This document shows positions 5,099 through 59,530 of a stretch of 64,000 nucleotides of DNA, one piece after another (position 1 is the stretch's first letter; every line of letters starts with the position of its first letter). The notes below the pieces were generated by a model. It was not told the origin of the DNA, did not search any database, and saw only the letters and a program-made list of their open reading frames with translations. Location of the stretch: NCBI RefSeq assembly GCF_021228795.1, contig NZ_CP089309.1, positions 310,001-374,000 on the forward strand. The letters are read 5' to 3'. Both the position numbers and the translations under genes were made by a program. Source of the stretch: Thiocapsa bogorovii. GTDB lineage: Bacteria > Pseudomonadota > Gammaproteobacteria > Chromatiales > Chromatiaceae.

Positions 5099-5338
5099 AT
5101 GGGAATTCCCAAGACACCGGACCAGTCGCCTGTCGTGACCTGCCATGCGGCCCCACCTGCTCCCGCCCATGTCGAGATGTCGCAGGGCCCCCTCGCCCGC
5201 AGCCTGGATGCCTTCGAAACCGAACAGCTCGCACGCCTGTTGAGCAAGCACAATGGCAACCGGCGCGAAATCGCGGGAGCGCTCGGTATCAGCGAACGGA
5301 CCATCTATCGCAAGCTGAAGCGTTTCGGTCTCGGCTAA
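5099..5338 (+). CDS. short protein with Fis-type helix-turn-helix (likely remnant of an NtrC-family regulator)
   Basis: A 79-aa frame whose C-terminal 45 residues match the Fis-type DNA-binding domain that ends sigma-54-dependent NtrC-family regulators: FETEQLARLLSKHNGN, then EIAGALGISERTIYRKLKRF. The receiver and AAA+ domains of such regulators are not found upstream in any frame, and the N-terminal 30 residues are low-complexity. Either this is a leftover C-terminus or a stand-alone small HTH protein. The neighbouring TlpA remnant favours decay. Its stop codon TAA lies inside the CTAAACCGCGTC repeat end. Confidence 0.5.
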   Translation: MGIPKTPDQSPVVTCHAAPPAPAHVEMSQGPLARSLDAFETEQLARLLSKHNGNRREIAGALGISERTIYRKLKRFGLG

Positions 5339-5346
5339 ACCGCGTC
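5335..5346 (+). repeat. half copy of the TAAACCGCGTC-end repeat family
   Basis: CTAAACCGCGTC is identical to the left end of the 85-88 bp inverted-end repeat found elsewhere in this window (11595, 24251, 30296, 45751, 59335, 59443). The matching right end (GACGCGGTTTAG) is not present about 87 bp downstream, so this copy is partial or degraded. Its TAA is the stop codon of the upstream HTH frame. Confidence 0.6.
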
Positions 5347-5462
5347 CGGTTCCAACGCCCGATTGGCCGGGGCGGAGGCAGGCACCGAGGATACGGTCGG
5401 GCCGTTTCTTGACCCCCGCTTGGCCGCCAGTGTGGTCTGCACGTCGATGTCGCGCGGGACAC

Positions 5463-5733
5463 TAGTACCCCGTTCCACCCTATTTTGCATGCTCAGAGCC
5501 CCCCCAAAAGCGCCGGGGCAAGGCACAGGCCGCGGGGAATAGTGGATCCTATTTCCAAGGGCTGTAACGCCGCCCCGGCGCTTTTGGGGGGCTCCCGAAG
5601 GGGCGAGGCGAGAAGCGTTCGGCGCCGTTGTTGCGCGAGCTTGAAAGAGGACCACTCTTCCTTCACTCGCGCGCCTAGCCGCCGAACGCTTCTGCCTCGC
5701 TGAGCACGCAAAATAGGGTGGAACGGGGTACTA
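5463..5733. repeat. 271-bp nested inverted-repeat (cloverleaf) element
   Basis: Three nested inverted repeats cover the whole element. The outer arms 5463-5496 and 5700-5733 are 34 bp each with one mismatch; the left arm begins TAGTACCCCGTTCCACCCTA. Between them lie two adjacent hairpins. Arm B pairs 5496-5519 with 5572-5594 (23 bp, one bulged C), with further pairing in its loop (GGAATAG with CTATTTCC). Arm C pairs 5603-5624 with 5680-5700 (one bulged G), with GCGCGAG/CTCGCGC continuing inside. The result is a three-way junction or cloverleaf. No transposase or plausible gene is inside; the open frames here are artefacts of the palindromes. It could be a MITE-like element, a structured RNA, or a folded DNA target. 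No other copy was seen in the window. Confidence 0.85.
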
Positions 5734-5798
5734 GGACATCTGACGTCCCACCCGCCGGGTGACGGCCGTTCAACTGCTGGATCTAGTCAAACCGGGTG

Positions 5799-7193
5799 TC
5801 AGTCGCCGCCCTCGCCGTAATAATTGCCGATATAGTTCTCGAACTTGGTGTATTTGCCGAGAAAGGTCAGTCGGGTTGTCCCGATGGGGCCGTTGCGCTG
5901 CTTGGCGATGATGATCTCGGCGACACCCTTCTCCTTCGTGTCCTCGTGATAGACCTCGTCGCGATAGATGAAGACAATGAGGTCTGCATCCTGCTCGATC
6001 GCGCCCGATTCCCTCAGATCCGACATCACCGGCCGCTTGTTCGGGCGCTGCTCGAGACTGCGATTGAGCTGGGAAAGTGCGATCACCGGGACGTTGAGCT
6101 CCTTGGCGAGCGCCTTGAGCGAGCGTGAAATCGCGGAAATCTCAGTTGCCCGATTCTCGCCGACCCCCGGGGCCTGCATGAGCTGGATGTAGTCCAGCAC
6201 GATCAGACCCAGGTCGTCTTGATCACGTTTGAGACGCCGTGCACGCGCCCGGACCTCGGTCGGGGAGAGGGCGGGGGTGTCGTCGATGAACATGGACGCT
6301 CCGGCCAGGATGTTGACCGCGGAGGTCAGGCGTGGCCACTCGTCGTCCTCGAGCCGCCCGGTTCGGACGCGGTGCTGATCGATGCGCCCGAGCGAAGACA
6401 TCATGCGCATCGCCAGCGCATCGCCCGGCATCTCCATACTGAAGACGGCCACAGGGCGTTTGGACTGGATGGCGACATGCTCGGCCATGTTCATGGCGAA
6501 GGAGGTCTTGCCCATCGAGGGCCGTCCCGCGACGATGATCAGGTCCGCGGGCTGCAGCCCCGAGGTCATCATGTCGAAGTCGGTGAAACCGGTCGCCAGT
6601 CCGGTGATGGGCTCGTCGCGCTGATAGAGTGCGTCGATACGCTCGACCGCGCGCCCGAGCAGGGTCTTGATCGGCTGGAACCCACCTCCGCCGCGCGCCT
6701 CCTGCTCGGCGATCTCGAAGACGCGGCGCTCGGCGGCATCGAGCAGCTCGGAGGCATCGCGACCCATGGGATTGTAGCCACTGTCGGCGATGTCCGTACC
6801 CGCGGCGATCATCTGGCGCAGCACCGAGGTCTGGCGGACGATCTTGGCGTAGGCCTTGATATTGGCCGCGCTCGGGGTCTCGTTGGCGATGGTGCCGAGG
6901 TAAGGAAGCCCGCCTGCGCCTTCGAGCTGCTCGGTGCGCTCGAGGGTCTCGGCGAGGGTCACCAGATCGAAGGGTTGGTCCTCCGCGGCCAGTTTGGCGA
7001 TGGCGCGAAAGATGAGGCGGTGCTCGCGTCGATAAAGGTCACGCTCTGTGACCATGTCGGCGATGCGGTCCCAGGTGCTGTTGTCCAGCATGAGACCGCC
7101 GAGCAGGGATTGTTCGGCATGAATGTTGTGCGGCGGGACACGGAGCTCGTCGAAGTCCGCGCCCGGCGGGCCTTGGGAATCCGAGTCGAACAT
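5799..7193 (-). CDS. dnaB: replicative DNA helicase
   Basis: A hexameric 5'-3' helicase of the replication fork, 464 aa, full length. The N-terminal DnaB domain begins VPPHNIHAEQSLLGGLM. The RecA-like C-terminal domain carries Walker A GRPSMGKTSFAM, the DnaB box VIVLDYIQLM-type segment (LIVLDYIQLMQ) and SDLRESGAIEQDADLIVFIYRD near the end. It lies downstream of rplI in the classic rpsF-rpsR-rplI-dnaB order, with a 157-bp gap to rplI. The short tail ends in YYGEGGD. No intein is visible. Confidence 0.97.
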   Translation of the reverse strand: MFDSDSQGPPGADFDELRVPPHNIHAEQSLLGGLMLDNSTWDRIADMVTERDLYRREHRLIFRAIAKLAAEDQPFDLVTLAETLERTEQLEGAGGLPYLGTIANETPSAANIKAYAKIVRQTSVLRQMIAAGTDIADSGYNPMGRDASELLDAAERRVFEIAEQEARGGGGFQPIKTLLGRAVERIDALYQRDEPITGLATGFTDFDMMTSGLQPADLIIVAGRPSMGKTSFAMNMAEHVAIQSKRPVAVFSMEMPGDALAMRMMSSLGRIDQHRVRTGRLEDDEWPRLTSAVNILAGASMFIDDTPALSPTEVRARARRLKRDQDDLGLIVLDYIQLMQAPGVGENRATEISAISRSLKALAKELNVPVIALSQLNRSLEQRPNKRPVMSDLRESGAIEQDADLIVFIYRDEVYHEDTKEKGVAEIIIAKQRNGPIGTTRLTFLGKYTKFENYIGNYYGEGGD

Positions 7194-7350
7194 AGACCAC
7201 CTCGGCCGAATGATCCGCGAGAAAGCGGGGCCTCGCCAGAGCTTCGGCCAGACCTTCGAGTCGATTCACGTGACGTGCCCGACGCCTCCGGGCGAGGCGC
7301 GCCGGCGATCCGACGGACGCTCGCCGCCGGATCGCCGAGGAACGGTCATC

Positions 7351-7800
7351 TCAGTCCTCGGGAACGACATCCACGGTGATGGTGGCATCGACCTCCGGAT
7401 GCAGGTGCAGCGTCACCTCATACTCGCCCGCGGCGCGGAAAGGTCCTCCGGAGAGTTTGACCTCGCCCTTCGACAGCGTAAACCCGGCGGCGGTCACTGC
7501 CTCGGCAATGTCGCCCGTGCCCACCGAGCCGAACAGCCGCCCCTGCTCGCCGGCACGGCGCGCGATCGTGACGCTCATCCCTTCGAAGTGATCGCGCCGA
7601 GCACGCGCCTCGGCAAGCTGCTCCGCTGCAACCTGCTCAAGCTCCGCACGCCGGGCCTCGAAGGCTTCGAGATTTGCATCGGTCGCCGACACGGCGAACC
7701 CGGAGGGGATCAAATAGTTCCGACCATAGCCCGGACGGACACTGACCTTGTCGCCGAGCGCTCCTAGGCGACCGACATTCTTCAACAGGATGACTTCCAC
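7351..7800 (-). CDS. rplI: 50S ribosomal protein L9
   Basis: A large-subunit ribosomal protein of 149 aa, the usual length. The N-terminal rRNA-binding domain reads MEVILLKNVGRLG, followed by the signature VRPGYGRNYLIPSGFAV. A long connecting helix (EARRAELEQ...) and the C-terminal domain with GTGDIAEAV follow. The start at 7800 is fixed by the conserved MEVILL N-terminus. It lies between the DUF2232 membrane gene and dnaB in the ribosomal S6-S18-L9 operon. Confidence 0.97.
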   Translation of the reverse strand: MEVILLKNVGRLGALGDKVSVRPGYGRNYLIPSGFAVSATDANLEAFEARRAELEQVAAEQLAEARARRDHFEGMSVTIARRAGEQGRLFGSVGTGDIAEAVTAAGFTLSKGEVKLSGGPFRAAGEYEVTLHLHPEVDATITVDVVPED

Positions 7801-7948
7801 GTGTGTATTCCTCTCAAAAGTTCTTCGAGATCAGGGTTTTGCACCCTCGATCCTCGGGTGATCCCCCGGAACGGGCGGCGCATGCGCCGGGACCTGATTC
7901 ATCCGGTCAAGATCTTTCGGCCAAACGGTCTTGCCCGATCCGTACGGG

Positions 7949-8881
7949 TCAGGTCGCCGGCCCGCTTGTGCCGGAACCCGGCGGCGGCGATGGTGCAACC
8001 CGAGACCGGATATCGGCCCAGATGTCCACCAAACCGATACAGGCGATCAGCAGCAGTGCCTGCGGCATGAAAAACACCACCAAGACGTAGAGCCCCACCA
8101 ACCACGCCTGCCGTGCCTGCTTGAGCGCTCGCACCTGATGGGCGACCGCGAGACCCTGAAACAGGAGCAGGACGCCAGGCACCAGCAATAGATTCGCCGT
8201 CAGGCTCGCGCCGTCGCTGAAGGGAAGAAGCGCCAGCAGCACGACGACGAGGACCCCGAAAGGACGACTCAAACGCAGCTGCCGAAACTCCTCGCCAAAC
8301 CCCCCCGGGTTGTAGAGCAGCGCCTGCCACCAGCGAGCAATAAAGAGCCCGAACAGCAACTGTGCGACCAAGGCCGCTGCAAATGCGCCGGTCATCCATC
8401 CGGCAAGCTCGGCGAACACGGCGGCACTCGCCGGATCGTCCAGCACGCCGTCTTTTACCAGCGCGTCCCGGAACGGCTCGAGGAGCGTCAGCCAGGTGGC
8501 ACTCGGGTCGCCCATCAGGCCGTACGCCGACAACACCAGAAGGACGCCCAACACACCTGCCACTTGCAGCGTCAGCGCCAAAGACCGGCTGTATCGCAGC
8601 AGCAGTGCCAGGGCCAGAATCGGCACCCAGAGCATCAACAGCACGCCGAGCGCAGGCAAAGGCGAGCCCAAAGCCAACCAGGCGATGACGCCCATTCCGA
8701 GGGTCGCCGCCGCACTCACGAGCAGCCCGTAAATAGGACCGCTTCGCAGAGCGACCAAACCGATCGAGCCGGCGCTGAGCAGCCCCAACGGCGGGACTAG
8801 GATCGACAACAGGGCCGTCGCGGCGGCGACCAGCGCCGCCTGCGACGGACCGCGCATCACGAAGGCCGCAATCGCCTTCAT
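7949..8881 (-). CDS. DUF2232 (YybS-like) polytopic membrane protein
   Basis: A 310-aa hydrophobic protein with about eight predicted membrane segments and a polar C-terminal tail rich in Pro, Ser and Gly. The start at 8881 (MKAIAAFVMRG) is 8 bp after the rpsR stop; the frame stays open further upstream but overlaps rpsR and rpsF. A DUF2232/YybS-type membrane protein between rpsR and rplI is a recurring arrangement in gammaproteobacteria and some other bacteria. No catalytic motif is visible and the function is unknown. Assignment rests on position, length and hydrophobic pattern. Confidence 0.75.
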   Translation of the reverse strand: MKAIAAFVMRGPSQAALVAAATALLSILVPPLGLLSAGSIGLVALRSGPIYGLLVSAAATLGMGVIAWLALGSPLPALGVLLMLWVPILALALLLRYSRSLALTLQVAGVLGVLLVLSAYGLMGDPSATWLTLLEPFRDALVKDGVLDDPASAAVFAELAGWMTGAFAAALVAQLLFGLFIARWWQALLYNPGGFGEEFRQLRLSRPFGVLVVVLLALLPFSDGASLTANLLLVPGVLLLFQGLAVAHQVRALKQARQAWLVGLYVLVVFFMPQALLLIACIGLVDIWADIRSRVAPSPPPGSGTSGPAT

Positions 8882-8889
8882 GCCGCGGA

Positions 8890-9640: not shown

Positions 9641-9645
9641 CGCGC

Positions 9646-11594: not shown

Positions 11595-11682
11595 CTAAAC
11601 CGCGCCAGCTCCGAGCGTCGTCGATTCAGCCCCAAGCCGATCCAACCCGAAAACAACGCAAATAACACTCTGCGCGGTTTAG
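11595..11682. repeat. 88-bp repeat with inverted TAAACCGCG ends
   Basis: The left end CTAAACCGCGCCAG (11595-11608) and right end CTGCGCGGTTTAG (11670-11682) are inverted copies, apart from one extra C. The element lies between two convergent genes. Its right end contains the TAA stop of the minus-strand DnaJ-like gene. It belongs to the dispersed 85-88 bp family described in the findings. Confidence 0.8.
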
Positions 11683-12440
11683 TCGCCCAGCAATAAGCGT
11701 TTGGCCTCGTTGATCTTCGCGGCCAGATAGTCCGACCCGCCGCGATCGGGATGCAGGCGTTGCATGAGCCGCCGATGGGCTGTGCGGATTGCATCGGCAT
11801 CGGCGTCCGGCTCCAAACCGAGAATCGCCCATGCCTCGGTCTTCGTGAGACGCTCGCCGTGGGGCGGCGCACGACCGGTACGGCCGCTTCCTTCGTCGCT
11901 TGCGCGCCAGTCGGCCTCGCGCTCGCGATCGAGATAGGCCTCGAGCACCGCCGCCGACTGTGCATCGGCGTCGCGATAGAACTCAAGGATGCGAATCAGC
12001 TCGTCGAGCGTGAGATCCGACAGGCGGCGATCCTTGAAGGGGCCGTCGAGGACTTGGCCGTCCATCGTGCCGGTCCTGTGATCCAGGCTCATCGCGAGGA
12101 ATTTCGTCCGAATGCTCGAGGCCTGAGCGCCGCCGCCGGCACCGGCTCCGCCGGGTCCAGCCAATCCACCCAGACCGAGACTGCGCAGCACCTGCTGGAT
12201 GGCGGGGAAGAGCCGCACGACGGCGGCCGCACGCAGCACCAGCGGGATGGCCGCGCCGACGGCCGCGAAGATGGGGCTCAAACGTCCGGTCGCTGCGGCA
12301 AGGACCAACACGCCGATGATGCCCCAGAACGCAGCCTTGCGCAGAACCTGACCGACCCGGTGCGCAGGAGTAACGCGAAACCAGTGAAGAAACCACAGCA
12401 CTGCGCCCAGGATTCCGAGCAGGATCAGCAAACGCGCCAT
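11679..12440 (-). CDS. membrane-anchored J-domain protein
   Basis: A 253-aa protein with two or three hydrophobic segments in the first 100 residues, a Gly/Ala-rich linker ([14 protein letters not shown]), a middle helical region ([17 protein letters not shown]...) and a C-terminal J domain. The J domain reads [14 protein letters not shown]...[32 protein letters not shown] with the essential HPD motif. Placing J at the C-terminus behind a membrane anchor resembles DjlA/Tim14-type co-chaperones, which recruit DnaK to the membrane. It follows a VWA protein gene 7 bp upstream, probably one operon. The client is unknown. Confidence 0.88.
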
Positions 12441-23426: not shown

Positions 23427-24254
23427 ATGACCACGGAATCCCTAAAAGAAACCATCAAGCGAGAGCTGCCGACCTGGCTGCGCGAAGATCCCGCGTTCCG
23501 GACCTATGTCCTCGAATTGACACGAAACGAGTACGCCGACCGAAGAGAGACCGGAGATCGATTCTACGAGCTGCTTGGCGAGCTACGTCGAGACCGCGAG
23601 AAGCAGGAGCGGAAGTGGGAAGCGAACCAGGCCGAGCTTGAGCGCATGCACGAGGAGCAAGCGCAAGAATGGGAGCAGCAGAACCGCCGTTGGGACGAAA
23701 ACCAAGCCGAGTGGCGCCGGCTTTGGGACGAGAACCGAGCGGAGCAGAGTCGTCTTTGGGAGGAGAGCCGCGCGGACAGCAATCGCCGCTGGGACGAGAA
23801 CCAGGAAGAGCTGAAGCGCCTGCATAACGAGGTCATGGCGCAGGCGCAGAAATTCGATCGCGGCATCGGTGCGCTCGTCTCGAGTTGGGGGCTCCAATCG
23901 GAGAAGGCGTTCCGCGATGCCCTGGCCGCTATCCTGGAACAGAGCTTCGACGTGCAGGTGGTCAACGTCACCGACTACGACGACTCGGGCGAGGTTTTCG
24001 GCCGTCCGGACCAGATCGAGCTGGATGTCATTATCAAGAACGGCCTGCTGCTGATCTGCGAGCTGAAGTCCTCGATCGACAAGGCCGGCCTGTACATCTT
24101 CGAGCGCAAGGCGCGTTTCTACGAGCGGCGCCACGAGCGCAAGGCCGATCGCCTGATCGTCATCTCGCCGATGATCGACGCCAGAGCCCGTAAGGTCGGC
24201 GAGCGGCTCGAGATCGAGATGTATGGGGACTCGACCGAGGTCGAGGCCTTCTGA
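23427..24254 (+). CDS. DUF3782-like protein: coiled coil with C-terminal PD-(D/E)XK-like domain
   Basis: A 275-aa protein starting at ATG 23427. It has an N-terminal helical segment, then a long charged coiled coil (about 45-145) with an 11-residue repeat in which W89, W100, W111 and W122 (then H133) recur exactly (RRWDENQ, RLWDENR, RLWEESR, RRWDENQ). The C-terminal domain has D200...E212-L-K214, the core of a PD-(D/E)XK nuclease fold. Such proteins occur in multiple copies in cyanobacteria and purple sulfur bacteria; their role is not known to me. Nuclease activity is inferred. The TGA stop lies in the 24251 repeat. Confidence 0.75.
   Translation: MTTESLKETIKRELPTWLREDPAFRTYVLELTRNEYADRRETGDRFYELLGELRRDREKQERKWEANQAELERMHEEQAQEWEQQNRRWDENQAEWRRLWDENRAEQSRLWEESRADSNRRWDENQEELKRLHNEVMAQAQKFDRGIGALVSSWGLQSEKAFRDALAAILEQSFDVQVVNVTDYDDSGEVFGRPDQIELDVIIKNGLLLICELKSSIDKAGLYIFERKARFYERRHERKADRLIVISPMIDARARKVGERLEIEMYGDSTEVEAF
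23685..23825 (+). repeat. 33-bp in-frame tandem repeat in the DUF3782-like gene
   Basis: About four units of 33 bp encode the 11-residue Trp-Asp/Glu-Glu repeat of the coiled coil. Units begin near 23685, 23718, 23751 and 23784, and a degenerate unit follows at 23817. Copy number would be open to slippage. Confidence 0.65.
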
Positions 24255-24338
24255 ACCGCGTCTCCCGGCCATCCGGGATCTTGTTTGCGACGGCATGCGT
24301 CGCCGGATATCAAGCGCGCGGTGCCGGACGCGGTTCAG
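24251..24338. repeat. 88-bp repeat with inverted TGAACCGCGTC ends
   Basis: CTGAACCGCGTC (24251-24262) and GACGCGGTTCAG (24327-24338) are perfect inverted 12-mers. The left end carries the TGA stop (24252-24254) of the DUF3782-like gene. Inner sequence includes short hairpins such as CCCGGCCATCCGGG. It is a member of the dispersed family. Confidence 0.85.
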
Positions 24339-24485: not shown

Positions 24486-27074
24486 ATGGATAAACCAGAT
24501 CAGAGTGCACACACCCCGGTGATGCAGCAGTACCTCCGCCTCAAGGCGGAGTATCCGGACATGCTGCTCTTCTATCGGATGGGCGATTTCTATGAGCTGT
24601 TCTTTGAGGACGCCGAGCGCGCCGCGCGGCTGCTGGACATCACCCTGACCAAGCGAGGGCAGTCGGCGGGTCGGCCGATCCCGATGGCGGGCGTACCCTA
24701 CCACGCCGCCGAGGCCTATCTGGCGCGCCTGGTCCGCAAGGGTGTCTCCGTGGCGATCTGCGAGCAGATCGGTGACCCGGCCAAGAGCAAGGGCCCGGTC
24801 GAGCGTAAGGTGGTACGCCTGGTCACCCCGGGGACCCTGACCGACGAGGCCTTGCTCGACGATCGGCGCGAGAACCTGCTGACGGCGATCGCCGAAGGGC
24901 GTGACAACTATGGCCTGGCGTTTTCGGAACTGTCGAGCGGGCGGTTCTCGGTCCTGGAAGTGGCCACCCGCGAGGCTTTGGCGAGCGAACTGGAGCGCTT
25001 GAAGCCGGCCGAGGTCTTGGTCGGAGAGGACAGCCGGCTACCCGAGTTGCTGCGCATCGACCGAGGTGTCACCCGCCGCCCGAGCTGGCACTTCGACCGC
25101 GACACCGGCGAACGTCTACTCTGCGATCAGTTCGGCACCCGCGATCTGAACGGCTTCGGCTGCACGGGGCTGGATCTCGCCATCGGCGCCGCGGGTTGTC
25201 TGCTGCAATATGTCCGCGACACCCAGTTCGCCGCCCTACCCCATCTGCGCGGGCTCACCACCGAGCAGCGCGACGAGGCCCTGATCCTGGACGCCGCGAC
25301 CCGTCGCAACCTGGAGATCACCGAGAGTCTCGGCGGACGGCCCGAGCACACGCTGGCCGGCGTGCTCGATCGGACCGCGACTGCGATGGGCAGCCGTCTG
25401 CTGCGACGCTGGCTCGGTAGGCCTTTGCGCTCGCGATCGGACGTGCAGTCGCGTCATGCCGCGATCGGCACCTTGATCGACACGGGCGTCCAAACCGACT
25501 TGCAGACGGTCCTCGCCGGGATCGGGGATCTCGAGCGCATCCTCTCGCGTATCGCACTGCGCTCGGCGCGTCCGCGGGATCTGGCCGCGCTGCGCGATGC
25601 CCTGGCCGTGCTGCCGGATCTGCGTGCACCGCTCGACGGCTGCGACGATCCGCTGCTTCTGACTCTCGCCGAGGCGATCGGCACCCACCCCGAGGTGCTG
25701 GATCTGCTTCGGCGCGCAATCATCACCCAACCCCCCATGCTGATCCGAGACGGCGGCGTCATCGCATCCGGCCTCGACCCGGAGCTCGATCGGCTGCGTG
25801 AGCTCTCGAGCAACGCGGACCGTTTTCTACTCGACCTGGAGACCCGCGAGCGCGAGCGCACCGGAATCTCCGGGCTGAAGGTCGGCTACAACCGCGTCCA
25901 CGGCTATTTCATCGAGCTCGGTCGCAGTCAGGCCGATCAGGTCCCGGAGGACTACATCCGCCGCCAGACGCTCAAAGGCGTCGAGCGCTATGTCACGCCC
26001 GAGCTCAAACGCTTCGAGGACGAGGTGCTGAGCAGCCGAGAGCGCGCACTGGCCCGCGAGAAGGCACTCTACGAGGATTTGCTAGGCACCCTCGCCGGGT
26101 CGCTCGCGCCCCTGCAAGCGAGCGCCGAGGCTATCGCGACGCTGGACGTGCTGGCGAATCTGGCCGAGCGCGCGCGGGCACTGGACTGGACCCGTCCGCG
26201 CCTGACCGACGAGGCGATCATCGAGATCGAAGACGGACGTCATCCCGTGGTGGAGACGGTCCTCGACGACCCCTTCATCGCCAACGGACTGCGTCTGGAT
26301 CGCCGCCGTCGCATGCTGGTCATCACCGGGCCCAACATGGGCGGTAAATCCACCTATATGCGCCAGAATGCCCTGATCGTGCTGCTCGCCTTTAGCGGGA
26401 GCTACGTCCCGGCGCGCACCGCGTCCATCGGCCCAATCGACCGCATCTTCTCGCGCATCGGCGCCTCCGACGACCTCGCCGGCGGACGCTCGACCTTCAT
26501 GGTGGAGATGGAAGAAACGGCCAACATCCTCAACAATGCGACCGCCCAGAGTCTGGTCTTAATGGACGAGGTCGGGCGCGGCACCAGCACCTTCGACGGG
26601 CTTTCGCTCGCTTGGTCGTGCGCTGTGGAGTTGGCCACGCGCATCGGTGCCTACGGTCTCTTCGCAACCCACTATTTCGAGCTGACGACATTGCCCGAGG
26701 AATATCCGGGTATCGCCAACGTCCACCTCGACGCGGTGGAGCACGGTGCCCGCATCGTCTTCATGCACGCCCTACGCGAGGGCCCGGCCAATCAGAGCTA
26801 CGGCCTGGCGGTCGCCGCACTCGCGGGCGTCCCGACCCCGGTGATCGCGCGTGCACGCGTACGATTGCGCGAGCTGGAAGCCGGCGCGCGACGCCATGCG
26901 GAGCGCGATGCCGTGCAGCTCTCGCTCTTCCCGCCCGATCCCGAGCCCGCCGCGCCGCATCCGCTTTTGGAGGTTATGGAGACCATCGAGCCGGACAGCT
27001 TGACGCCTCGAGCAGCCTTGGATCTGCTGTATCGCCTGAAGGATCTCTCGGCCGATCGTCCATCTGTCGCTTGA
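24486..27074 (+). CDS. mutS: DNA mismatch repair protein MutS
   Basis: A mismatch-recognition ATPase of about 862 aa. The N-terminal mismatch-binding domain shows the Phe-x-Glu motif in [16 protein letters not shown] and a PMAGVPYHA-type segment. Connector, lever and clamp regions follow ([25 protein letters not shown]). The ATPase has Walker [35 protein letters not shown] and Walker [19 protein letters not shown]. The C-terminal helix-turn-helix region is intact. ATG 24486 is preferred to the TTG at 24477. No mutL is nearby. The protein is full length. Confidence 0.97.
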
Positions 27075-30182: not shown

Positions 30183-30295
30183 CAACACGCGTCTCCCGCG
30201 CCGCGCGAGGGCATAGGCCCGGACCGCCCTTGCAGCTGCCCACCACCACCCGAGCGGACGCGCTTGAATTGATTGACTTCTTTTCGCTTTTTCAT

Positions 30296-30380
30296 CTAAA
30301 CCGCGTCGGGCATAAGGCTTCCAGGCTCCTCCGCGACTTGCTCCAACGCAAGCCCATATTTGGACTACGGACGCGGTTTA
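30296..30380. repeat. 85-bp repeat with inverted TAAACCGCGTC ends
   Basis: CTAAACCGCGTC (30296-30307) and GACGCGGTTTA (30370-30380) are inverted copies. The right part overlaps the 3' end of ogt: the TAG stop (30365-30367) and the last residues (KPRP) are encoded inside it. It is a member of the dispersed family. Confidence 0.85.
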
Positions 30381-30835
30381 CGGGATTCGTGGCCAAGCAG
30401 CCAGCGTTTGACTGCGAGCTTGCGTCCGTTCGTGTCTCCCGAGAAACCGCCGAGGCCGTCGACGGCGACCACCCGATGGCAGGGCACCACGATTGGACAG
30501 GGGTTGGCACGACAGGCTTGTCCGACTGCGCGTGGGCCGCTCCCGAGTCGCCGCGCGATCTCCCCGTACGTTCGGGTCTCGCCCGCCGGAATCCGACGCA
30601 GCTCGGCCCAGACCCGTTGTTGGAAATCGGTGCCGACCAGCGAGACCGGGAGATCGAACCCGGTCGACGCCTGCTCGAAATAGGCTCTAAGCTGCAGCCG
30701 AATGGCCGACGGCATACCTTCCGCCCCCAGGTGTGCATGCGTAGCCGGCGGGTCCAGATCGACGCCGGTCAATGTCTCGCCGTCCCAGTGGATAGCGATC
30801 CGGCCAATAGGGGTATCGATCCGAGTCTGCGGCAT
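30365..30835 (-). CDS. ogt: methylated-DNA--protein-cysteine S-methyltransferase
   Basis: A suicide repair enzyme of 156 aa that removes alkyl groups from O6-alkylguanine and O4-alkylthymine. ATG 30835 is chosen because GGAGGAA lies 8-9 bp upstream (the GTG/TTG start 15 bp earlier lacks it). The DNA-binding and active-site region reads FQQRVWAELRRIPAGETRTYGEIARRLG, RAVGQACRANP and IVVPCHRVVAVDG with the acceptor Cys, then GGFSGDTNGRKLAVKRWLL. The C-terminus ESRKPRP runs into the repeat. No Ada N-terminal domain is present, so it is Ogt-type. Confidence 0.94.
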   Translation of the reverse strand: MPQTRIDTPIGRIAIHWDGETLTGVDLDPPATHAHLGAEGMPSAIRLQLRAYFEQASTGFDLPVSLVGTDFQQRVWAELRRIPAGETRTYGEIARRLGSGPRAVGQACRANPCPIVVPCHRVVAVDGLGGFSGDTNGRKLAVKRWLLGHESRKPRP

Positions 30836-43961: not shown

Positions 43962-45749
43962 ATGAGTACCGTCATGCAACTGGGGTGGGAAGGCTGGTTC
44001 AGCCTGGGCATCGTGGTGCTCTGCTTCGGGCTTTTCGCCTTCAGCCGCGCCGCGCCGGATGTCGTCACCGCCGGCGCACTGACCCTGCTGCTTCTGTTCG
44101 GTATCCTGACCCCGACGGAGGCCCTGAGCGGCTTCTCCAATCCGGGCATGTTGACGGTCGGCGTCCTCTACGTGGTCGTTACAGGCCTTACCCAGACCGG
44201 TGCCGTCGGTTGGATCGGACCGGGGCTGCTCGGACGCCCGCGCGGACCAACCGATGCGCGTCTGCGACTCATGTTGCCGGTCGCGGGTCTGAGCGCCTTC
44301 CTGAACAATACGCCGGTGGTGGCTATCTTCATCCCGGCCGTGCAGGACTGGGCCAAGCGACACCGCCTGGAGCTTTCGCGCCTGCTCATCCCGCTCTCCT
44401 TCGCCAGTATCGTCGGCGGCACCTGTACCCTGATCGGCACCAGCACCAACCTGGTGGTCAACGGGCTCTATACGGAGCGTCTCGACGGCGAGGGCCTGGG
44501 CCTCTTCGAGCCGATCTGGGTCGGCCTGCCCATCACGGTCGCGACACTCATCTTCATGCTCACGGCGGGGCACTGGTTGCTCCCGAAACGCACCTCGGCG
44601 GCCGCCAGCTACGAAGATGTCCGCCAATACACCTCCGAGATGCTCGTCGAGCCGGACAGTCCACTGATCGGCAAGAGCATCGAGGACGCCGGTCTGCGCC
44701 AGCTCCCCGGACTCTTCCTGATCGAGATCGAGCGCGGCGAGCAGGTGATGGCGGCCGTATCCTCGCAGGAGGTGCTCCAGGCGAACGACCGGCTGGTCTT
44801 TGCCGGGATCCTGGATTCGGTGATGGACCTGCAGCGCACTCGCGGTCTGATCCCGGCAACCGATCAGGTCTTCAAGCTCAACGTGCCGCGCCCGGGGCGC
44901 TGCTTTGTCGAGGCCGTGCTGTCGGACAAATCGCCCCTAGTCAGCAAGAGCGTGCGCGCCGGGCGGTTTCGCAATCGCTACGATGCCGTCATCATCGCGC
45001 TCGCGCGCAACGGCGAGCGCGTCGACCGCAAGATCGGCGATATCGTCCTCGCGCCGGGCGACACACTCCTGCTGGAGACCCGCCCGGATTTCGTGGAGCA
45101 GCAGAAGAACTCGCGCGACTTTCTGCTGGTGAGTCAGATCGGGGATTCGCATCCGCTCAAGCACAAGCACGCGCCGATCGCGATCGCCATCGTTGTCGCG
45201 ATGGTGGCGGTCGTCACTGTCGGATGGCTCAGCATGCTGGAGGCCGCACTGCTGGCTGCGGGGCTGATGATCCTGACGCGCTGCACCGACAGCCGCACCG
45301 CACGGCGCTCGCCGGACTGGCAGGTGCTGGTGGTGATCGCCACCTCTTTCGGCATCGGCGCCGCCTTGGAGAAAACAGGCGCGGCCTCGCTGGTGGCCGG
45401 CGGTCTGATCGGGCTGGCGGACGGGGATCCCTGGGTCACGCTTGCTTTGGTCTTTACCGCGACCGCCCTACTGACCTCGCTTGCGACCAACAACGTGGCC
45501 GCGGTGCTGGTGTTCCCGATCGCCGTGCAGGCGGCTCAGGCCATGGAGGTGTCGCCCGAGCCCTTTATCCTGACCCTGATGGTTGCGGCATCCGCCAGCT
45601 TCGCGACACCCATCGGTTACCAAACCAACCTGATGGTGTTCAATGTCGGCGGCTACCACTTCGGGGACTTCGTGCGGATCGGAGTCCCCTTGACCTTGGT
45701 GGTCGGGTTGGTGACGGTCCTCGTGGTGCCTTTGGTCTGGTCCTTTTAA
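43962..45749 (+). CDS. SLC13-family (DASS) transporter with two RCK_C domains
   Basis: A 595-aa membrane transporter starting at ATG 43962. N-terminal helices carry the motif GLSAFLNNTPVVAIFIP and GGTCTLIGTSTNLVVNGL (the SNT/NTPV-type ion and substrate site). Two TrkA-C/RCK_C cytoplasmic domains follow in tandem (about 215-300 and 310-390). A second membrane half ends with LTSLATNNVAAVLVFPIAVQA and ATPIGYQTNLMVFNVGGY. Similar proteins carry sulfate or other anions with sodium. The stop is one base before a family repeat. Confidence 0.92.
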   Translation: MSTVMQLGWEGWFSLGIVVLCFGLFAFSRAAPDVVTAGALTLLLLFGILTPTEALSGFSNPGMLTVGVLYVVVTGLTQTGAVGWIGPGLLGRPRGPTDARLRLMLPVAGLSAFLNNTPVVAIFIPAVQDWAKRHRLELSRLLIPLSFASIVGGTCTLIGTSTNLVVNGLYTERLDGEGLGLFEPIWVGLPITVATLIFMLTAGHWLLPKRTSAAASYEDVRQYTSEMLVEPDSPLIGKSIEDAGLRQLPGLFLIEIERGEQVMAAVSSQEVLQANDRLVFAGILDSVMDLQRTRGLIPATDQVFKLNVPRPGRCFVEAVLSDKSPLVSKSVRAGRFRNRYDAVIIALARNGERVDRKIGDIVLAPGDTLLLETRPDFVEQQKNSRDFLLVSQIGDSHPLKHKHAPIAIAIVVAMVAVVTVGWLSMLEAALLAAGLMILTRCTDSRTARRSPDWQVLVVIATSFGIGAALEKTGAASLVAGGLIGLADGDPWVTLALVFTATALLTSLATNNVAAVLVFPIAVQAAQAMEVSPEPFILTLMVAASASFATPIGYQTNLMVFNVGGYHFGDFVRIGVPLTLVVGLVTVLVVPLVWSF

Positions 45750-45750
45750 A

Positions 45751-45837
45751 CTGAACCGCGTCCTGTTCTCGAACCGCGGCGCCCGGTCGTCGCGGTGACC
45801 TCGAACGTGCCTCGAGAACGGCATCGACGCGATTCAG
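45751..45837. repeat. 87-bp repeat with inverted TGAACCGCGTC ends
   Basis: CTGAACCGCGTC (45751-45762) and GACGCGATTCAG (45826-45837) are inverted copies with one mismatch. An inner hairpin GTTCTCGA/TCGAGAAC is present. It lies one base after the SLC13 stop and belongs to the dispersed family. Confidence 0.85.
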
Positions 45838-54962: not shown

Positions 54963-56947
54963 TGGTCCCCGAGCTAGGTCACTTCGCGCTTGTTCTCGCG
55001 CTCGTCATCACGATCGCGCAGGCATCTGTCCCGCTGCTCGGCAGCTTCGTCGGAAACCGCCGCTGGATGGAGATGGCTCGACCGCTCGCCCGCGGCCAGC
55101 TGACCTTCATCGCAATCGCCTTCGTCGCGCTCCTGCATGCATTTTTGACGGACGACTTCTCGGTCGAATATGTCGCGGGTCACTCCAACACCCTGATGCC
55201 GGTTCTGTACAAGGTCTCGGCGATCTGGGGCGGTCATGAAGGATCCTTACTGCTGTGGGCCCTGATGTTGGCCGGCTGGGGTGCTGCCGTCGCGGCCTTC
55301 AGCAAGAATCTGCCGTTGGCGATGGTGGCTCGCGTGGTCTCGGTCCTCGGGATGGTGGCGATCGGCTTCCTGCTGTTCATGCTCTTGACCTCGAACCCCT
55401 TCGACCGGCTCTTCCCGGCACCGCTCGAGGGCCGCGACCTGAATCCGCTGCTGCAGGACTTCGGTTTGGCGATCCACCCGCCGATGCTCTATATGGGCTA
55501 TGTCGGCTTCTCGGTCGCCTTCGCCTTCGCCATTGCCGCACTCATCGGCGGCAAGTTGGACTCGGCCTGGGCGCGCTGGTCGCGGCCCTGGACGACCGCG
55601 GCCTGGGTCTTTCTCACCATCGGTATCGCGTTGGGCTCCTGGTGGGCCTATTACGAGCTGGGCTGGGGTGGCTGGTGGTTCTGGGATCCGGTCGAGAACG
55701 CCTCCTTCATGCCGTGGCTGGTGGGCACGGCGCTGATCCATTCGCTTGCCGTCACGGAGAAGCGCGCAGCCTTCAAGAGTTGGACCGTACTGCTCGCCAT
55801 CTCGGCCTTTTCTCTGTCGCTGCTCGGGACCTTCCTGGTGCGCTCGGGTGTTCTGACGTCCGTCCATGCCTTCGCGACGGATCCGGCACGCGGCACCTTC
55901 ATTCTGATCTTCCTCTGCGTCGTGATCGGCGGATCGCTGGCACTCTATGCCTTGCGCGCGCCGACCATTGCCGGCGGCGGTCGCTTCGACATCCTCTCGC
56001 GCGAGAGCTTCCTGCTGGTCAATAACCTGCTCTTCGCGACTCTGACGGTCCTGGTCTTGTTCGGCACCCTCGCCCCGTTGATCTACGAGGCCGCCGGGTG
56101 GGGCAAGATCTCGGTCGGCTTCCCCTGGTTCAACAAGATGTTCGTGTCACTCTCGCCCTTCCTCATCGTGGCGATGGGGATCGGACCCTTGACCCGCTGG
56201 AAGCACGACGAGCCGCTGCGCCTCGTGCGCTCGCTTTGGATCGCGCTTGTACTCGCCATCGCCGTCTTCATCGTGGCTCTGCAGCCGATGTTCGAGGACG
56301 GCGGCCTCGCGATGGCCTTCGGTCTGAGCATGAGCGCCTGGCTGGTCGGCACGCATCTGATTGCCCTCGCCGAGCGCCTGAAGAACAAAGGCGGTTTCCG
56401 GGGCCTGGCGGCCGACTTCAACGCTCGCAATCTCAGCTACTACGGCATGTGGACCGCGCATGTCGGGATCGCGATGTTCATCGTCGGCGTCACCATGGTG
56501 TCGATCCACGGCTCCGAGACGGACGTGCGGATGTCGCCGGGCGACGTGCACGAGGACTCGGGCTACCGCTTCCAGTTCAACGGGGTTCAGGCGATCACCG
56601 GACCCAACTACCTGGCGCAGCAAGGCGAGTTTCTCGTCACCAAAGATGACCGACAGATCGCCGTGCTCTATCCGGAGAAGCGCTCGTATTTCTCGGGCGG
56701 CATGCCGATGACCGAAGCGGCCATCAACGCCGGCTTCCTGCGTGATCTCTACGTCTCGCTCGGCGAGCCCGTGGGAACGGACGGCGACTGGGCGCTGCGG
56801 GTCTACTACAAACCATTCGTGCGCTGGATCTGGCTCGGCGCGCTCCTGATGGCACTCGGCGGTCTCTTGGCGATGGCCGATCGGCGTTATCGCACGGTGC
56901 GGCGAACCGCGGATGTCCCGGCCGGGGCGCTGGGGGCACGCTCATGA
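54962..56947 (+). CDS. ccmF: haem lyase CcmF
   Basis: A 661-aa polytopic subunit of the CcmFH haem ligation complex. It carries the tryptophan-rich haem motif GWGGWWFWDPVENASFMPWL (about residues 230-250) and flanking histidines, as in HSVTEK-type ALIHSLAVTEKRAAFKSW. A large periplasmic domain (SETDVRMSPGDVHEDSGYRFQF) lies near the C-terminus. It starts at ATG 54962, overlapping the ccmE stop by one base. Confidence 0.96.
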   Translation: MVPELGHFALVLALVITIAQASVPLLGSFVGNRRWMEMARPLARGQLTFIAIAFVALLHAFLTDDFSVEYVAGHSNTLMPVLYKVSAIWGGHEGSLLLWALMLAGWGAAVAAFSKNLPLAMVARVVSVLGMVAIGFLLFMLLTSNPFDRLFPAPLEGRDLNPLLQDFGLAIHPPMLYMGYVGFSVAFAFAIAALIGGKLDSAWARWSRPWTTAAWVFLTIGIALGSWWAYYELGWGGWWFWDPVENASFMPWLVGTALIHSLAVTEKRAAFKSWTVLLAISAFSLSLLGTFLVRSGVLTSVHAFATDPARGTFILIFLCVVIGGSLALYALRAPTIAGGGRFDILSRESFLLVNNLLFATLTVLVLFGTLAPLIYEAAGWGKISVGFPWFNKMFVSLSPFLIVAMGIGPLTRWKHDEPLRLVRSLWIALVLAIAVFIVALQPMFEDGGLAMAFGLSMSAWLVGTHLIALAERLKNKGGFRGLAADFNARNLSYYGMWTAHVGIAMFIVGVTMVSIHGSETDVRMSPGDVHEDSGYRFQFNGVQAITGPNYLAQQGEFLVTKDDRQIAVLYPEKRSYFSGGMPMTEAAINAGFLRDLYVSLGEPVGTDGDWALRVYYKPFVRWIWLGALLMALGGLLAMADRRYRTVRRTADVPAGALGARS

Positions 56948-57522
56948 CGGCGACCACCACCCCGTCGAGAACGGCAGCAACAAGAGCGAAGAGGCGCGCG
57001 CTGATCCCGCTCGTCGTCTTCATTGCGTTGGCCGCGCTGCTGTTCTACGGCCTTCAACTGGACCCGCGCAAGGTCCCCTCGCCGCTCGTGAACAAGCCCG
57101 CGCCCGTGTTCGAGCTCGAGACACTGGACGACCCGAGCCGCACGGTGACCAACGAGATCCTCATGGGAAAGGTCTCCTTGGTGAATGTCTGGGCCTCTTG
57201 GTGCCCCTCATGCCGCCAGGAGCATGGCGAGCTGATGCAGATCGCACGCGAGAACGATGTCCAGGTCGTCGGGTTCAACTGGAAGGACACACGACCCGAG
57301 GCGCTCGAGATGCTTAGACGCTACGGCAACCCCTACGTCGTGAGCGCCTACGATCCGGACAATCGCTACGGTATACACTGGGGTGTCTACGGCGCTCCCG
57401 AGACCTTCGTGGTCGACGGCGAGGGCATTATCCGTTACAAGCACATCGGGCCGGTCGACCGCAACGTCTGGGAGACCACGATCCGCCCCATCGTCGAGCA
57501 GTATAGACCTCAGCCATCATGA
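56944..57522 (+). CDS. ccmG: periplasmic thiol reductase CcmG (DsbE)
   Basis: A membrane-anchored thioredoxin-fold protein, 192 aa, that keeps apocytochrome CxxCH thiols reduced. N-terminal anchor (LIPLVVFIALAALLFYGLQL), then NVWASWCPSCRQEH with C87 and C90, and GVYGAPETFVVDGEG with the cis-proline. Overlaps ccmF by 4 bp and ccmH by 4 bp. The TlpA remnant at 4710-4946 is a different, broken protein. Confidence 0.96.
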   Translation: MTATTTPSRTAATRAKRRALIPLVVFIALAALLFYGLQLDPRKVPSPLVNKPAPVFELETLDDPSRTVTNEILMGKVSLVNVWASWCPSCRQEHGELMQIARENDVQVVGFNWKDTRPEALEMLRRYGNPYVVSAYDPDNRYGIHWGVYGAPETFVVDGEGIIRYKHIGPVDRNVWETTIRPIVEQYRPQPS

Positions 57523-58019
57523 TCCATCGCGTCCGCAAACTCTCTTTCAGTCTCGCGCTGCTCGTCGGAACACTGGCGTTCGGAAACCTATCCGCCTACA
57601 CCCTCGAAGAGTTCAAGTTCGAGCAGCCCGGCCAACACGAGGCGTTTCGGGACCTGATCGCCAAGCTGCGCTGCCTCGTCTGTCAAAACGAGTCGCTCGC
57701 CGGCTCGCAGGCCGGCGTCGCGCAGGACCTGCGCGAAGAGGTTTATCGCATGATGCTCGAAGGACAGAGCGACGAGGAGATCGTGACATTCCTCGTCGAT
57801 CGCTACGGCGACTTCGTGCTCTATGAGCCTCCGATCAAGCCATCGACCTATATCCTCTGGTTCGGCCCTTTCATCTTCCTCGGCGTCGGTGGTTATCTGC
57901 TGTTCCGCACGCTTGGACGCAAAAAGGACGAACCCGAGGAGGACCTCACCGAGGCCGAACGCGCCCGTCTTCAACGACTGCTCGCCGCCGGCGGCGATAA
58001 CCAAGAAAACATCAAATGA
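57519..58019 (+). CDS. ccmH: cytochrome c biogenesis protein CcmH (CcmL type)
   Basis: A 166-aa protein of the haem ligation complex. Signal peptide (FSLALLVGTLAFGNLSA), periplasmic helix bundle with the redox motif LRCLVCQNESLAGSQA, and a C-terminal membrane helix (YILWFGPFIFLGVGGYLLF). Short CcmL-type form; the TPR part is encoded separately by ccmI. Overlaps its neighbours by 4 bp on each side. Confidence 0.95.
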   Translation: MIHRVRKLSFSLALLVGTLAFGNLSAYTLEEFKFEQPGQHEAFRDLIAKLRCLVCQNESLAGSQAGVAQDLREEVYRMMLEGQSDEEIVTFLVDRYGDFVLYEPPIKPSTYILWFGPFIFLGVGGYLLFRTLGRKKDEPEEDLTEAERARLQRLLAAGGDNQENIK

Positions 58020-59338
58020 TCATCTTCTGGATTCTGACCGCCGGGCTCATGGGCCTGGCGTTGCTTTTTGTCGCCCTTCCGCTGCTGCAACCCGAGAAAG
58101 CGACCGAAGCACCCGAGCAGGACGAGTTGAATCTCACGGTCTTCAAGCAGCGGCTCCAAGAACTGGATGCCGATCTCGCCGGTGGATTTCTGGAACAGGA
58201 CCAGTACGCTGCGGCTCGACGCGATCTGGAACGAGACCTCCTGCGCGACATCCCGGGAGAGCTCGCAGCGTCGGGGCGCCGCGGCGCTTCCGGCGGGCGC
58301 TGGCTGGCGCTCGTGCTTGCGATGGCGGTGCCGACCGCGGCAGTGCTGATCTACAACGAGGTCGGCCACCGCGAGATCATCGAGCGCATCGAGGGCGTCG
58401 CCCTGAGCGCCGAAGCACCGCAGACCCTGATCGGACCCGATGGCGAGGAGCTCCCGCCGCTTGAGGTCCTGGTCGAGCGCCTCGAGGAGAGGCTGGCAGA
58501 GGATCCGAACAACATCGACGGATGGCTGATGATCGGCCGGACCTACTTCACCATGCGCCGCCCGGGTCAGGCACTCGACGCCGTCTCGAAGGCCTATGCC
58601 TTGGCACCGGAGCGTCCGGATGTGATGCTCGCCTATGCGGAGGCCATGGCTGCCAACAGCAACAACAGCCTTGAAGGCGAACCGGCCGCGCTGATCGATC
58701 GGGTTCTAAAGGCCGAGCCGGACAACGTGAGTGCCCGCTGGCTTGCCGGGATGCTCTACTACCAGCGCGGGCAGTACACTGCCGCGGCAACGGCTTGGCA
58801 GCGCATCCTCGACGAGATGGATCCCGCGTCGGAGGACGCCGCGGACATGCGCGAGATGATCACGGAGGCGCAGACGCGTGCCGGCGCTCCCGCAAACGCA
58901 GCGACCGCAAACCAGCCCGCTGCGGCAGAGCCAGCTGCCGGAACATCCCCAACGCAAACCGGATCGCCCGCCGCACCCGAGCCCGCCGCCGGCGTCTCGG
59001 TCACCGCAGACGTCAGCCTGGATCAAGCCGTCTCGGCCGGTGCGGCTCCGGAGGATACCGTATTCGTTTTCGCGCGCGCCGTCGCCGGGCCGCCGATGCC
59101 GCTCGCCGTTCAACGCATCAAGGTCAAGGACCTCCCGACCCGTGTCACCCTCGACGACAGTATGTCGATGATGCCCGCAATGCGCCTTTCCGCCTTCCCG
59201 CAGGTGATGATCGGCGCACGCGTGGCAAAAAGCGGCCAAGCGACACCGCAACCGGGCGACCTTGAAGGAGAAACCGGGCCGATCGACAGCGCCGGAAATA
59301 CGCAAGTCGCCGTGACCATCAACCGCATCAGGCCCTAA
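58016..59338 (+). CDS. ccmI: apocytochrome c chaperone CcmI (CycH)
   Basis: A 440-aa membrane protein that binds the C-terminus of apocytochrome c and delivers it to CcmFH. Two membrane helices at 1-25 and about 95-115 flank a coiled cytoplasmic region (FKQRLQELDADLAGGFLEQDQY). TPR repeats (LEERLAEDPNNIDGWLMIGRTYFTMRRPGQALDAV) follow, then an Ala/Pro linker and a C-terminal domain (VSLDQAVSAGAAPEDTVFVFARAV). Its TAA stop lies inside the repeat at 59335. Confidence 0.93.
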   Translation: MIIFWILTAGLMGLALLFVALPLLQPEKATEAPEQDELNLTVFKQRLQELDADLAGGFLEQDQYAAARRDLERDLLRDIPGELAASGRRGASGGRWLALVLAMAVPTAAVLIYNEVGHREIIERIEGVALSAEAPQTLIGPDGEELPPLEVLVERLEERLAEDPNNIDGWLMIGRTYFTMRRPGQALDAVSKAYALAPERPDVMLAYAEAMAANSNNSLEGEPAALIDRVLKAEPDNVSARWLAGMLYYQRGQYTAAATAWQRILDEMDPASEDAADMREMITEAQTRAGAPANAATANQPAAAEPAAGTSPTQTGSPAAPEPAAGVSVTADVSLDQAVSAGAAPEDTVFVFARAVAGPPMPLAVQRIKVKDLPTRVTLDDSMSMMPAMRLSAFPQVMIGARVAKSGQATPQPGDLEGETGPIDSAGNTQVAVTINRIRP

Positions 59339-59421
59339 ACCGCGTCCGGCGCGACAAGCGCCGGTTACGGATCGTCTCGATGTCTTATCGACCCAGACGC
59401 CTCGCGGCAGACGCGGTTTAG
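59335..59421. repeat. 87-bp repeat with inverted TAAACCGCGTC ends (first of two)
   Basis: CTAAACCGCGTC (59335-59346) and GACGCGGTTTAG (59410-59421) are perfect inverted 12-mers. The ccmI stop TAA is 59336-59338, inside the left end. An inner CGGCGCGACAAGCGCCG-type hairpin is present. A second copy starts 22 bp later. Confidence 0.88.
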
Positions 59422-59442
59422 AAACGATAAAAAATGAATCAC

Positions 59443-59530
59443 TTAAACCGCGTCCGCTGCGTCGCTCGCGTTTTGGTGTTACGCCTCGCCCGCCTGAAAC
59501 CCTCTCATAGACCCACAAGACGCGGTTTAA
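59443..59530. repeat. 88-bp repeat with inverted TTAAACCGCGTC ends (second of two)
   Basis: TTAAACCGCGTC (59443-59454) and GACGCGGTTTAA (59519-59530) are perfect inverted 12-mers. The right end holds the TAA stop (59527-59529) of the minus-strand ybhB-like gene. Together with the copy at 59335 it fills the space between two convergent genes. Confidence 0.88.

What the first reader, a model, noticed from the sequence alone, without database searches (positions are those of the whole stretch)
5335..59530. Dispersed 85-88 bp repeat family with inverted TAAACCGCGTC / GACGCGGTTTA ends
Six full copies (11595-11682, 24251-24338, 30296-30380, 45751-45837, 59335-59421, 59443-59530) and one half copy (5335-5346) occur in 64 kb. 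Lengths are nearly constant, ends are conserved as 11-12-bp inverted repeats, and interiors differ. All are 3' of genes. This looks like an undescribed intergenic palindromic repeat family, possibly a MITE or a terminator-like element spread through the genome.
Basis: seen in the sequence. Interest (0 to 1): 0.75.

Follow-up and report, generated by a model that had tools for sequence, protein, structure and literature searches.

The report
Stop-codon-loving hairpin mobile DNA family
A purple sulphur bacterium and its relatives carry hundreds of short hairpin-shaped mobile DNA pieces that sit mostly after genes, often exactly in a gene's stop codon, which the inserted DNA then rebuilds; the kind of thing is known, but this family and the enzyme that moves it are not.

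Summary
The six window copies belong to a genome-wide family: 326 exact-core copies in the 5.65 Mb genome against 2 for the reversed control. Copy numbers of 204-757 occur in 8 of 11 genomes of the genus; 31 of 210 genomes of the order match, patchily. Of 369 genomes sampled across the class only the own one matched a stricter pattern. Filled and empty alleles in relatives show that the elements come and go as units, like MITEs or REPINs. A unit is a 12-bp paired stem (YTRAACCGCGYC...GRCGCGGTTYAR) around about 62 nt of variable interior, length almost fixed. Where the junction is clean the target is YTAR, with TA on both sides of the element. Units also occur as a 190-bp dimer, A-spacer-inverted B (27 of 27 well-classified pairs). 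At 62 of 114 insertion sites in three genomes an outer end is exactly a stop codon, since TA or TG plus the element's first A makes a stop. Stem bases covary, but G-U and A-C mispairs are equally common in the sense direction, so a sense-RNA terminator is disfavoured. No transposase could be linked: the Y1/RAYT and IS630 genes read do not carry these ends.

The parts
5335..5346 (+). left arm of a broken copy (CTAAACCGCGTC); its TAA is the stop of a short called frame 5177-5338
11595..11682 (-). single unit, closest to subfamily B (similarity 0.67); stop TAA of the minus-strand gene 11679-12440 (DnaJ-domain protein) lies in its right end; the same copy is present in the three Thiocapsa loci L031, L032, L033
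24251..24338 (.). old single unit with TG...CA outer bases; gives stop TGA of the gene 23427-24254 (PDDEXK_10/DUF3782); mutS follows at 24522; orthologous copy with identical stem in G001, left halves only in G004 and G010
30296..30381 (.). old single unit between minus-strand genes; orthologous copies in G001, G008 and G010 with 1, 0 and 0 stem differences of 24 and interiors 56-58% identical
45751..45837 (.). old single unit with TG...CA outer bases; gives stop TGA of ORF 43985-45754 (589 aa, no Pfam match; the caller preferred an overlapping frame)
59335..59421 (+). first hairpin of a dimer; gives stop TAA of the gene 58016-59338 (CcmH/CycH-like)
59422..59442 (+). AT-rich spacer of the dimer (27 nt between the cores)
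59443..59530 (.). second hairpin of the dimer; gives stop TAA of the minus-strand gene 59527-59994 (phosphatidylethanolamine-binding protein family)

Best explanation
This is a family of small non-autonomous mobile elements moved in trans by an enzyme encoded elsewhere. The unit is a DNA hairpin: a 12-bp stem around an interior of about 62 nt whose sequence is free but whose length is nearly fixed. It inserts at the TA of YTAR targets, so that TA stands on both sides of it, either alone or as a 190-bp dimer of two diverged units in fixed inverted order. Because the element begins with A on both strands, insertion into a TAA or TAG stop codon leaves TAA at the same place. That makes stop codons harmless landing sites and would explain why about half of the insertions sit exactly in one. 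Shown: presence/absence polymorphism of whole units and dimers, YTAR/TA junctions at the clean loci, exact stop-codon coincidence, stem covariation. Inferred: that the polymorphism is mostly gain and not loss, a trans-acting transposase, harmlessness as the reason for the stop-codon bias, and selection or repair at DNA level as the reason for the covariation.
For: 326 copies versus 2 in the control. Filled and empty alleles in relatives that are 84-87% identical at a window locus: five insertions at four loci (sites 20, 84, 99, and 65 and 112, which share a locus) show a single TA in the empty allele and TA on both sides in the filled one. Dimers are present or absent as a unit at sites 18, 20, 55, 84, 109, 112 and 121. 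Pairs are A(+)-spacer-B(-) in 31 of 37, and in 27 of 27 where both units are classified well. Stop coincidence at 30 of 56, 19 of 36 and 13 of 22 insertion sites in G000, G010 and G004. For sites with TA at both ends this is 17 of 30, 17 of 29 and 8 of 17, 7.2, 7.7 and 7.7 times the odds per intergenic YTAR site. Few genes run into a unit and end inside it: 5, against 66 exact stops, in the three genomes. No copy of 74 lies inside a called gene. Stem positions -3, -1 and +7 are paired in 62, 69 and 70 of 74 copies, none of 10000 shuffles reaching that; -4 and +9 are not paired above chance. Core variants change in both arms together. Stem divergence is 29 of 514 versus interior 245 of 1342.
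Against: No transposase with these ends was found. Locus 18 fits a TA duplication but is filled with shifted left flanks in G004 and G010, so the G001 allele may be a loss. Loci 55, 107, 109 and 121 lack a clean TA in the empty allele. I did not polarise gain and loss with an outgroup. Older copies carry TG...CA instead of TA...TA (28 of 74 old copies), which a plain TA duplication does not explain. The 7-fold excess at stop codons may be more than harmlessness alone gives. Of the four truly empty orthologs of stop-overlapping copies, the gene ends at the same codon in three (18, 55, 99) and 36 bases further on in one (115), where the copy shortens the gene. Gene ends come from my own simple caller.
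Confidence: 0.77

Rival explanations
1. A true IS630/Tc1-mariner MITE: internal-deletion derivative of a DDE element, with a 2-bp TA target duplication.
For: TA on both sides with one TA in the empty allele at four loci, and with doubt at a fifth; YTAR context.
Against: The IS630 genes (PF13358) of the own genome (4 of 4 loci read) and 30 of 38 matches in eight relatives are not enclosed by AACCGCG ends; where TA-flanked terminal repeats were found they were others. G003, with 453 copies, has no PF13358 match (91% complete draft). Complementary TG...CA ends, and a bias of dimers for one orientation at CTAA (15 to 5 among well-classified pairs, p=0.04; 20 to 6 with poorly classified ones, p=0.009), are not expected.
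Confidence: 0.33
2. A REPIN-like element moved as single-stranded DNA by a Y1/HUH transposase of the IS200/RAYT type; hairpins are recognised, target choice involves pairing with the hairpin foot, and there is no real duplication (junction T^A).
For: Conserved ends, free interior of fixed length, compensatory changes and inverted doublets resemble REPINs as described in PMC3116915 (passages read). Flank bases pair within the hairpin far above chance. Orientation bias of dimers at CTAA. Y1 genes are present in all 11 genomes of the genus.
Against: None of the 14 Y1 genes of the own genome, nor the 9 of 9 of G010 and 6 of 8 of G004 that I read, is flanked by the element on both sides; in L104, L119, L123, L195 and L199 units lie about 1-1.3 kb away on one side. 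The three genomes without the family also have Y1 genes. No GTAG tag.
Confidence: 0.3
3. A host-selected 3'-end RNA hairpin (terminator or mRNA stabiliser) that happens to be repeated.
For: Position after genes; convergent gaps enriched (24 of 74 elements versus 99 of 683 gaps), divergent depleted (6 of 74 versus 99 of 683); stem conserved more than interior.
Against: G-U and A-C mispairs equal in the sense direction, 30:30, a 2:1 ratio rejected at p=0.009 with cells taken as independent; no U tract; interior no more structured than shuffles (mean z -0.25, 74 copies); whole-unit presence/absence.
Confidence: 0.12
4. The covariation is made by a mutational process (template switching between the arms of the palindrome) and not by selection; compatible with either mobility model.
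For: Both arms change together in variant copies; no strand bias relative to transcription.
Against: Most stems keep the consensus (49 of 78 palindromes match it at 12 of 12); the terminal pair at -3, with no paired neighbour outside, is also matched.
Confidence: 0.3

Closest known systems
REPINs (REP doublets forming hairpins) with RAYT transposases (PMC3116915, passages read)
   Same: Conserved ends, variable interior of fixed length, compensatory changes, extragenic, inverted doublets
   Different: 12-bp ends without GTAG tag, no RAYT flanked by the elements among those read, TA/YTAR target, larger units joined in a 190-bp dimer
TA-terminated small mobile repeats: RUP, Correia/NEMIS, ERIC (PMC2229807, passages read)
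   Same: About 100-200 bp or less, terminal inverted repeats, TA at both ends, no transposase encoded
   Different: Interior not conserved between copies; exact stop-codon placement at about half of the sites; complementary TG...CA variants; no related IS630 found
GTAG- and CGTC-tagged REP superfamilies and TIRYT repeats (PMC3733652: abstract, passages and section 16 read)
   Same: Palindromic, dimers, close to gene ends; GTAG REPs often give a TAG stop codon to flanking ORFs
   Different: Those have stems of 5-13 bp, loops of 2-20 nt and an unpaired tag; here the stem encloses about 62 nt and no tag is unpaired
MITEs of Ca. Thiomargarita nelsonii (PMC4853749, passages read)
   Same: MITEs without known parent in a sulphur-oxidising bacterium
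   Different: Reported inside genes and introns, with direct repeats TATAG or 10 bp; sequences not compared here
Integron attC sites (recalled; anatomy only)
   Same: Hairpin of variable interior next to stop codons
   Different: No cassette gene between copies, no GTTRRRY core; units are present or absent alone

Membership tests
IS630/Tc1-mariner MITE | 2-bp TA target duplication | tested here: inconclusive
   Of nine loci with an empty allele four fit, one fits with doubt, four do not show it. T^A insertion without duplication fits equally
IS630/Tc1-mariner MITE | Terminal repeats shared with a full IS630 element | tested here: not met
   4 of 4 own loci and 30 of 38 loci of relatives not enclosed by AACCGCG ends
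IS630/Tc1-mariner MITE | Terminal inverted repeats, under 200 bp, no transposase gene inside | tested here: met
REPIN/RAYT | Elements flank a RAYT (Y1) gene | tested here: not met
   14 of 14 own Y1 loci, 9 of 9 of G010, 6 of 8 of G004
REPIN/RAYT | GTAG tag at the REP end | tested here: not met
   Ends are YTRAACCGCGYC
REPIN/RAYT | Inverted ends, fixed length, compensatory changes | tested here: met
CGTC REP | 8-9 bp stem, 4-5 nt loop, unpaired CGTC | tested here: not met
   12-bp stem with about 62-nt loop; CGTC is inside the stem
Intrinsic terminator | GC stem followed by a U tract | tested here: not met
   TTTT within 15 nt in 10 of 79 single tandem elements, AAAA in 15
Rfam RNA families | Match at gathering score | tested here: not met
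   0 matches in the window
Integron attC | Cassette arrays with an integrase, GTTRRRY core | not tested
   Only the anatomy was compared; core motif recalled

The most novel reading that the evidence does not exclude
A mobile-element lineage specialised for stop codons: its ends are built so that insertion into a TAA or TAG stop on either strand rebuilds a stop at the same place, it is targeted there beyond what YTAR availability and harmlessness would give, and its hairpin is kept paired at DNA level by a still unknown, possibly non-DDE and non-RAYT mobiliser that reads the target by pairing with the hairpin foot.
Probability: 0.25. Interest if true: 0.75.

Novelty: new variant of a known kind. 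Interest (0 to 1): 0.52.

Why it matters
It is an abundant and still polymorphic family in which target rule, dimer formation and placement after genes can be read from filled and empty alleles, and a clear case where a mobile element can escape the cost of insertion by rebuilding a stop codon. If the stop-codon bias is active targeting, it would be a new targeting mode; if the mover is neither IS630 nor RAYT, a new mobiliser is waiting to be found.

Tried and rejected
Search for an autonomous parent: Y1_Tnp loci, DDE_3/IS630 loci, DDE_Tnp_1_2 (0 of 5 genomes), 32 orphan ends in about 1.6 Mb of five genomes, read by eye, and neighbouring units 60-3500 bp apart, where no A(+)...B(-) pair encloses a gene (by eye). 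All negative. L206 looked like a parent but is an IS630 remnant with other ends inserted into a member of the family.

Sense-RNA function: mispair direction, U tract, interior folding; all against.

Plasmids and phages: a 207-bp stretch with a G010 dimer has no match in either collection. One search was the plasmid search with a wrong locus and says nothing.

The strict list gives four stop-overlapping sites with a truly empty ortholog once site 88 (a left-half copy in G004) and site 68 (same locus as 18) are set aside. One search's odds mixed TG and TA ends; searches give the TA-only counts.

Limits: age classes rest on similarity to four hand-made subfamily strings. Counts over several genomes include orthologous copies. 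One search includes pairs with different occupants at one site, which inflates interior divergence, and leaves gap columns out. In six pairs picked by hand as clearly homologous (offsets 122661, 195096, 234254, 269338 and 32796, and 296355 with G010) the counts are 6 of 168 stem and 100 of 430 interior.
Full report
What is there. The window is part of a complete 5.65 Mb genome close to Thiocapsa: an ORF from the window finds three records, all Thiocapsa, a genus of the Chromatiaceae. The window has no Rfam match and no tRNA. The pattern AACCGCG-N54-80-CGCGGTT occurs 326 times in the genome and 2 times when read backwards. In 800 kb around the window exact-core copies have lengths 78-84 only, 54 against 1 in the reversed sequence. 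With one mismatch allowed and a check of the outer bases, 74 copies pass there.

Who has it. In the genus 8 of 11 genomes (own included) carry 204-757 exact-core copies; G005, G006 and G009 have 2, 1 and 2, their controls 5, 1 and 0. With the stricter pattern G005 has 1 and the other two 0. Those three are also the most distant at a window locus (72-75% identity against 83-87%). In the order, 31 of 210 genomes match: 9 in the genus, 8 others with 30-278 copies (G028, G061, G064, G066, G146, G171, G172, G175), and 14 others with 1-3; controls are 0 in nearly all rows, 1 in three. In a sample of 369 genomes of the class only the own one matches a still stricter pattern. By eye, the same interior subfamilies appear in different genera.

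Anatomy. Column by column in 74 copies a 12-bp stem is paired: positions -3 to +8, YTRAACCGCGYC; -4 and +9 are not. Variable columns covary: C-G or T-A at -3 (62 of 74 paired), A-T or G-C at -1 (69 of 74), T-A or C-G at +7 (70 of 74); no shuffle of 10000 reached these. Shuffling ignores relatedness of copies. A search by pairing and loose end similarity finds 78 palindromes at the element spacing in the 800 kb, known copies included, against 1 and 1 at two other spacings. Fourteen were not in the first list, and most of these have a changed core with both arms changed together, for instance CTAAACTGCGCC...GGCGCAGTTTAG. Of 74 copies 28 have 12 of 12 pairs and 36 have 11. The interior is not more structured than shuffles.

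Mobility. I compared G000 with G001, G004 (T. marina 5811), G008 and G010 over 140-257 kb each. Eleven filled sites at nine loci have an allele without the element in at least one relative (15 comparisons printed). At four loci (sites 20, 84, 99, and 65 with 112, which hold different occupants at one place) the empty allele has a single TA (TTAG or CTAG) and the filled one TA on both sides. Locus 18 with 68 looks the same, but its left flank is shifted in G004 and G010, so the G001 allele may be a loss. Loci 55, 107, 109 and 121 do not show a clean TA. Pairs of units are present or absent together at sites 18, 20, 55, 84, 109, 112 and 121. Of 37 pairs in five genomes 31 are A(+)-spacer-B(-), all 27 in which both units are classified well; the spacer is AT-rich, 27 nt in 20 of 37. 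Pairs and singles at one locus can differ by about 108 bp, for instance G000 410869, as expected from deletion between direct end repeats or from stepwise gain. The same TA can hold unrelated occupants in different species (203511, 413872), and a dimer in G001 sits in the TA beside an old copy (site 16).

Stop codons. With a simple codon-usage gene caller no copy of 74 lies inside a gene (60-base margin); 44 are in tandem gaps, 24 in convergent and 6 in divergent ones, against 485, 99 and 99 such gaps. Counting a pair as one site, 30 of 56 sites in G000, 19 of 36 in G010 and 13 of 22 in G004 have a gene stop exactly at an outer end: 50 TAA, 15 TGA, 1 TAG. For sites with TA at both ends these are 17 of 30, 17 of 29 and 8 of 17, odds 7.2, 7.7 and 7.7 times those of intergenic YTAR. 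Five genes run into a unit and end inside it, against 66 exact stops, so truncation is not the usual origin of these stops. Four stop-overlapping sites have a truly empty ortholog: in three (18, 55, 99) the orthologous gene ends at the same codon, in one (115) it runs 36 bases further. Site 55 is a TGA stop in the empty allele and TAA in the filled one. Harmlessness explains avoidance of genes; whether it explains the whole excess is open.

Ageing. Young copies have TA...TA in 74 of 82; old ones TG...CA in 28 of 74 and TG...TA in 3. In G000 the table TG/CA 21, TG/TA 3, TA/CA 2, TA/TA 41 departs strongly from independence. At four sites with orthologs (0, 2, 6, 15) TG...CA is shared by both species; at site 11 G000 has TA...TA where G004 has TG...TA. 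So either the end pair belongs to the element and insertion is T^A without duplication, or compensation is mostly old. Between species the stem differs at 29 of 514 positions, the interior at 245 of 1342 and the flanks at 95 of 954 in the 16 pairs with G000; some pairs hold different occupants, so the contrast is somewhat inflated. Old copies also decay: at the window copy 24251 G004 and G010 keep only the left half, like the half copy at 5335.

Why not RNA. If the sense hairpin were selected, G-U should outnumber A-C among mispairs. They are 21:21 in tandem context and 9:9 in convergent copies with one stop overlap; 2:1 is rejected at p=0.009 together and 0.03 for tandem alone, orthologous copies counted separately. 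There is no U tract.

Target reading. Outer flanks are non-palindromic in 21 of 28 dimers and 14 of 91 singles with Y...R flanks, middle-aged ones left out. Oriented A to B, dimers are more often in CTAA than in TTAG: 15 to 5 among well-classified pairs (p=0.04), 20 to 6 with the rest (p=0.009). This is a hint on small numbers that the hairpin foot takes part in target choice, as in IS200/IS605 elements (recalled).

Mover. No Y1 or IS630 gene among those read carries these ends, DDE_Tnp_1_2 is absent from the five genomes tried, and no gene lies between an A(+) and a B(-) unit in the stretches read. Only part of each genome was read for orphan ends, and other transposase families were not tried, so a parent may have been missed.

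Verdict. A real family of non-autonomous hairpin elements, not found described in my searches, REPIN-like in organisation and with TA/YTAR junctions as in TA-type MITEs, but failing a defining test of each.

Noticed in passing
window 5503-5588: A perfect 14-bp inverted repeat (CCCAAAAGCGCCGG) at the element spacing but with little end similarity; a far-diverged member or chance (controls give 1 per 800 kb).
   Followed up: no
window about 2.9-5.8 kb: This stretch is missing from the orthologous loci L032 (T. marina) and L033, an indel around the half copy.
   Followed up: no
window 30292-30738: A minus-strand open frame runs through the whole element at 30296-30381; no Pfam match, so probably not a gene.
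   Followed up: partly
L206 1290-1420: An IS630 remnant in G007 is inserted into a member of the family.
   Followed up: yes
L195, L199: A variant of the ends, AACCGCT...AGCGGTT, beside a normal copy about 1.3 kb from a Y1 transposase gene.
   Followed up: partly
G031, G098, G100, G152, G153: One or two copies in genomes whose listed congeners mostly have none; by eye those of G031 and G098 look like Thiocapsa subfamilies, which suggests horizontal transfer or residue.
   Followed up: no
loci L204, L210, L215, L216, L220, L224, L228: An IS630 family with TACCTCATATAGGCACAA ends is present in several copies in G001 and G010.
   Followed up: no
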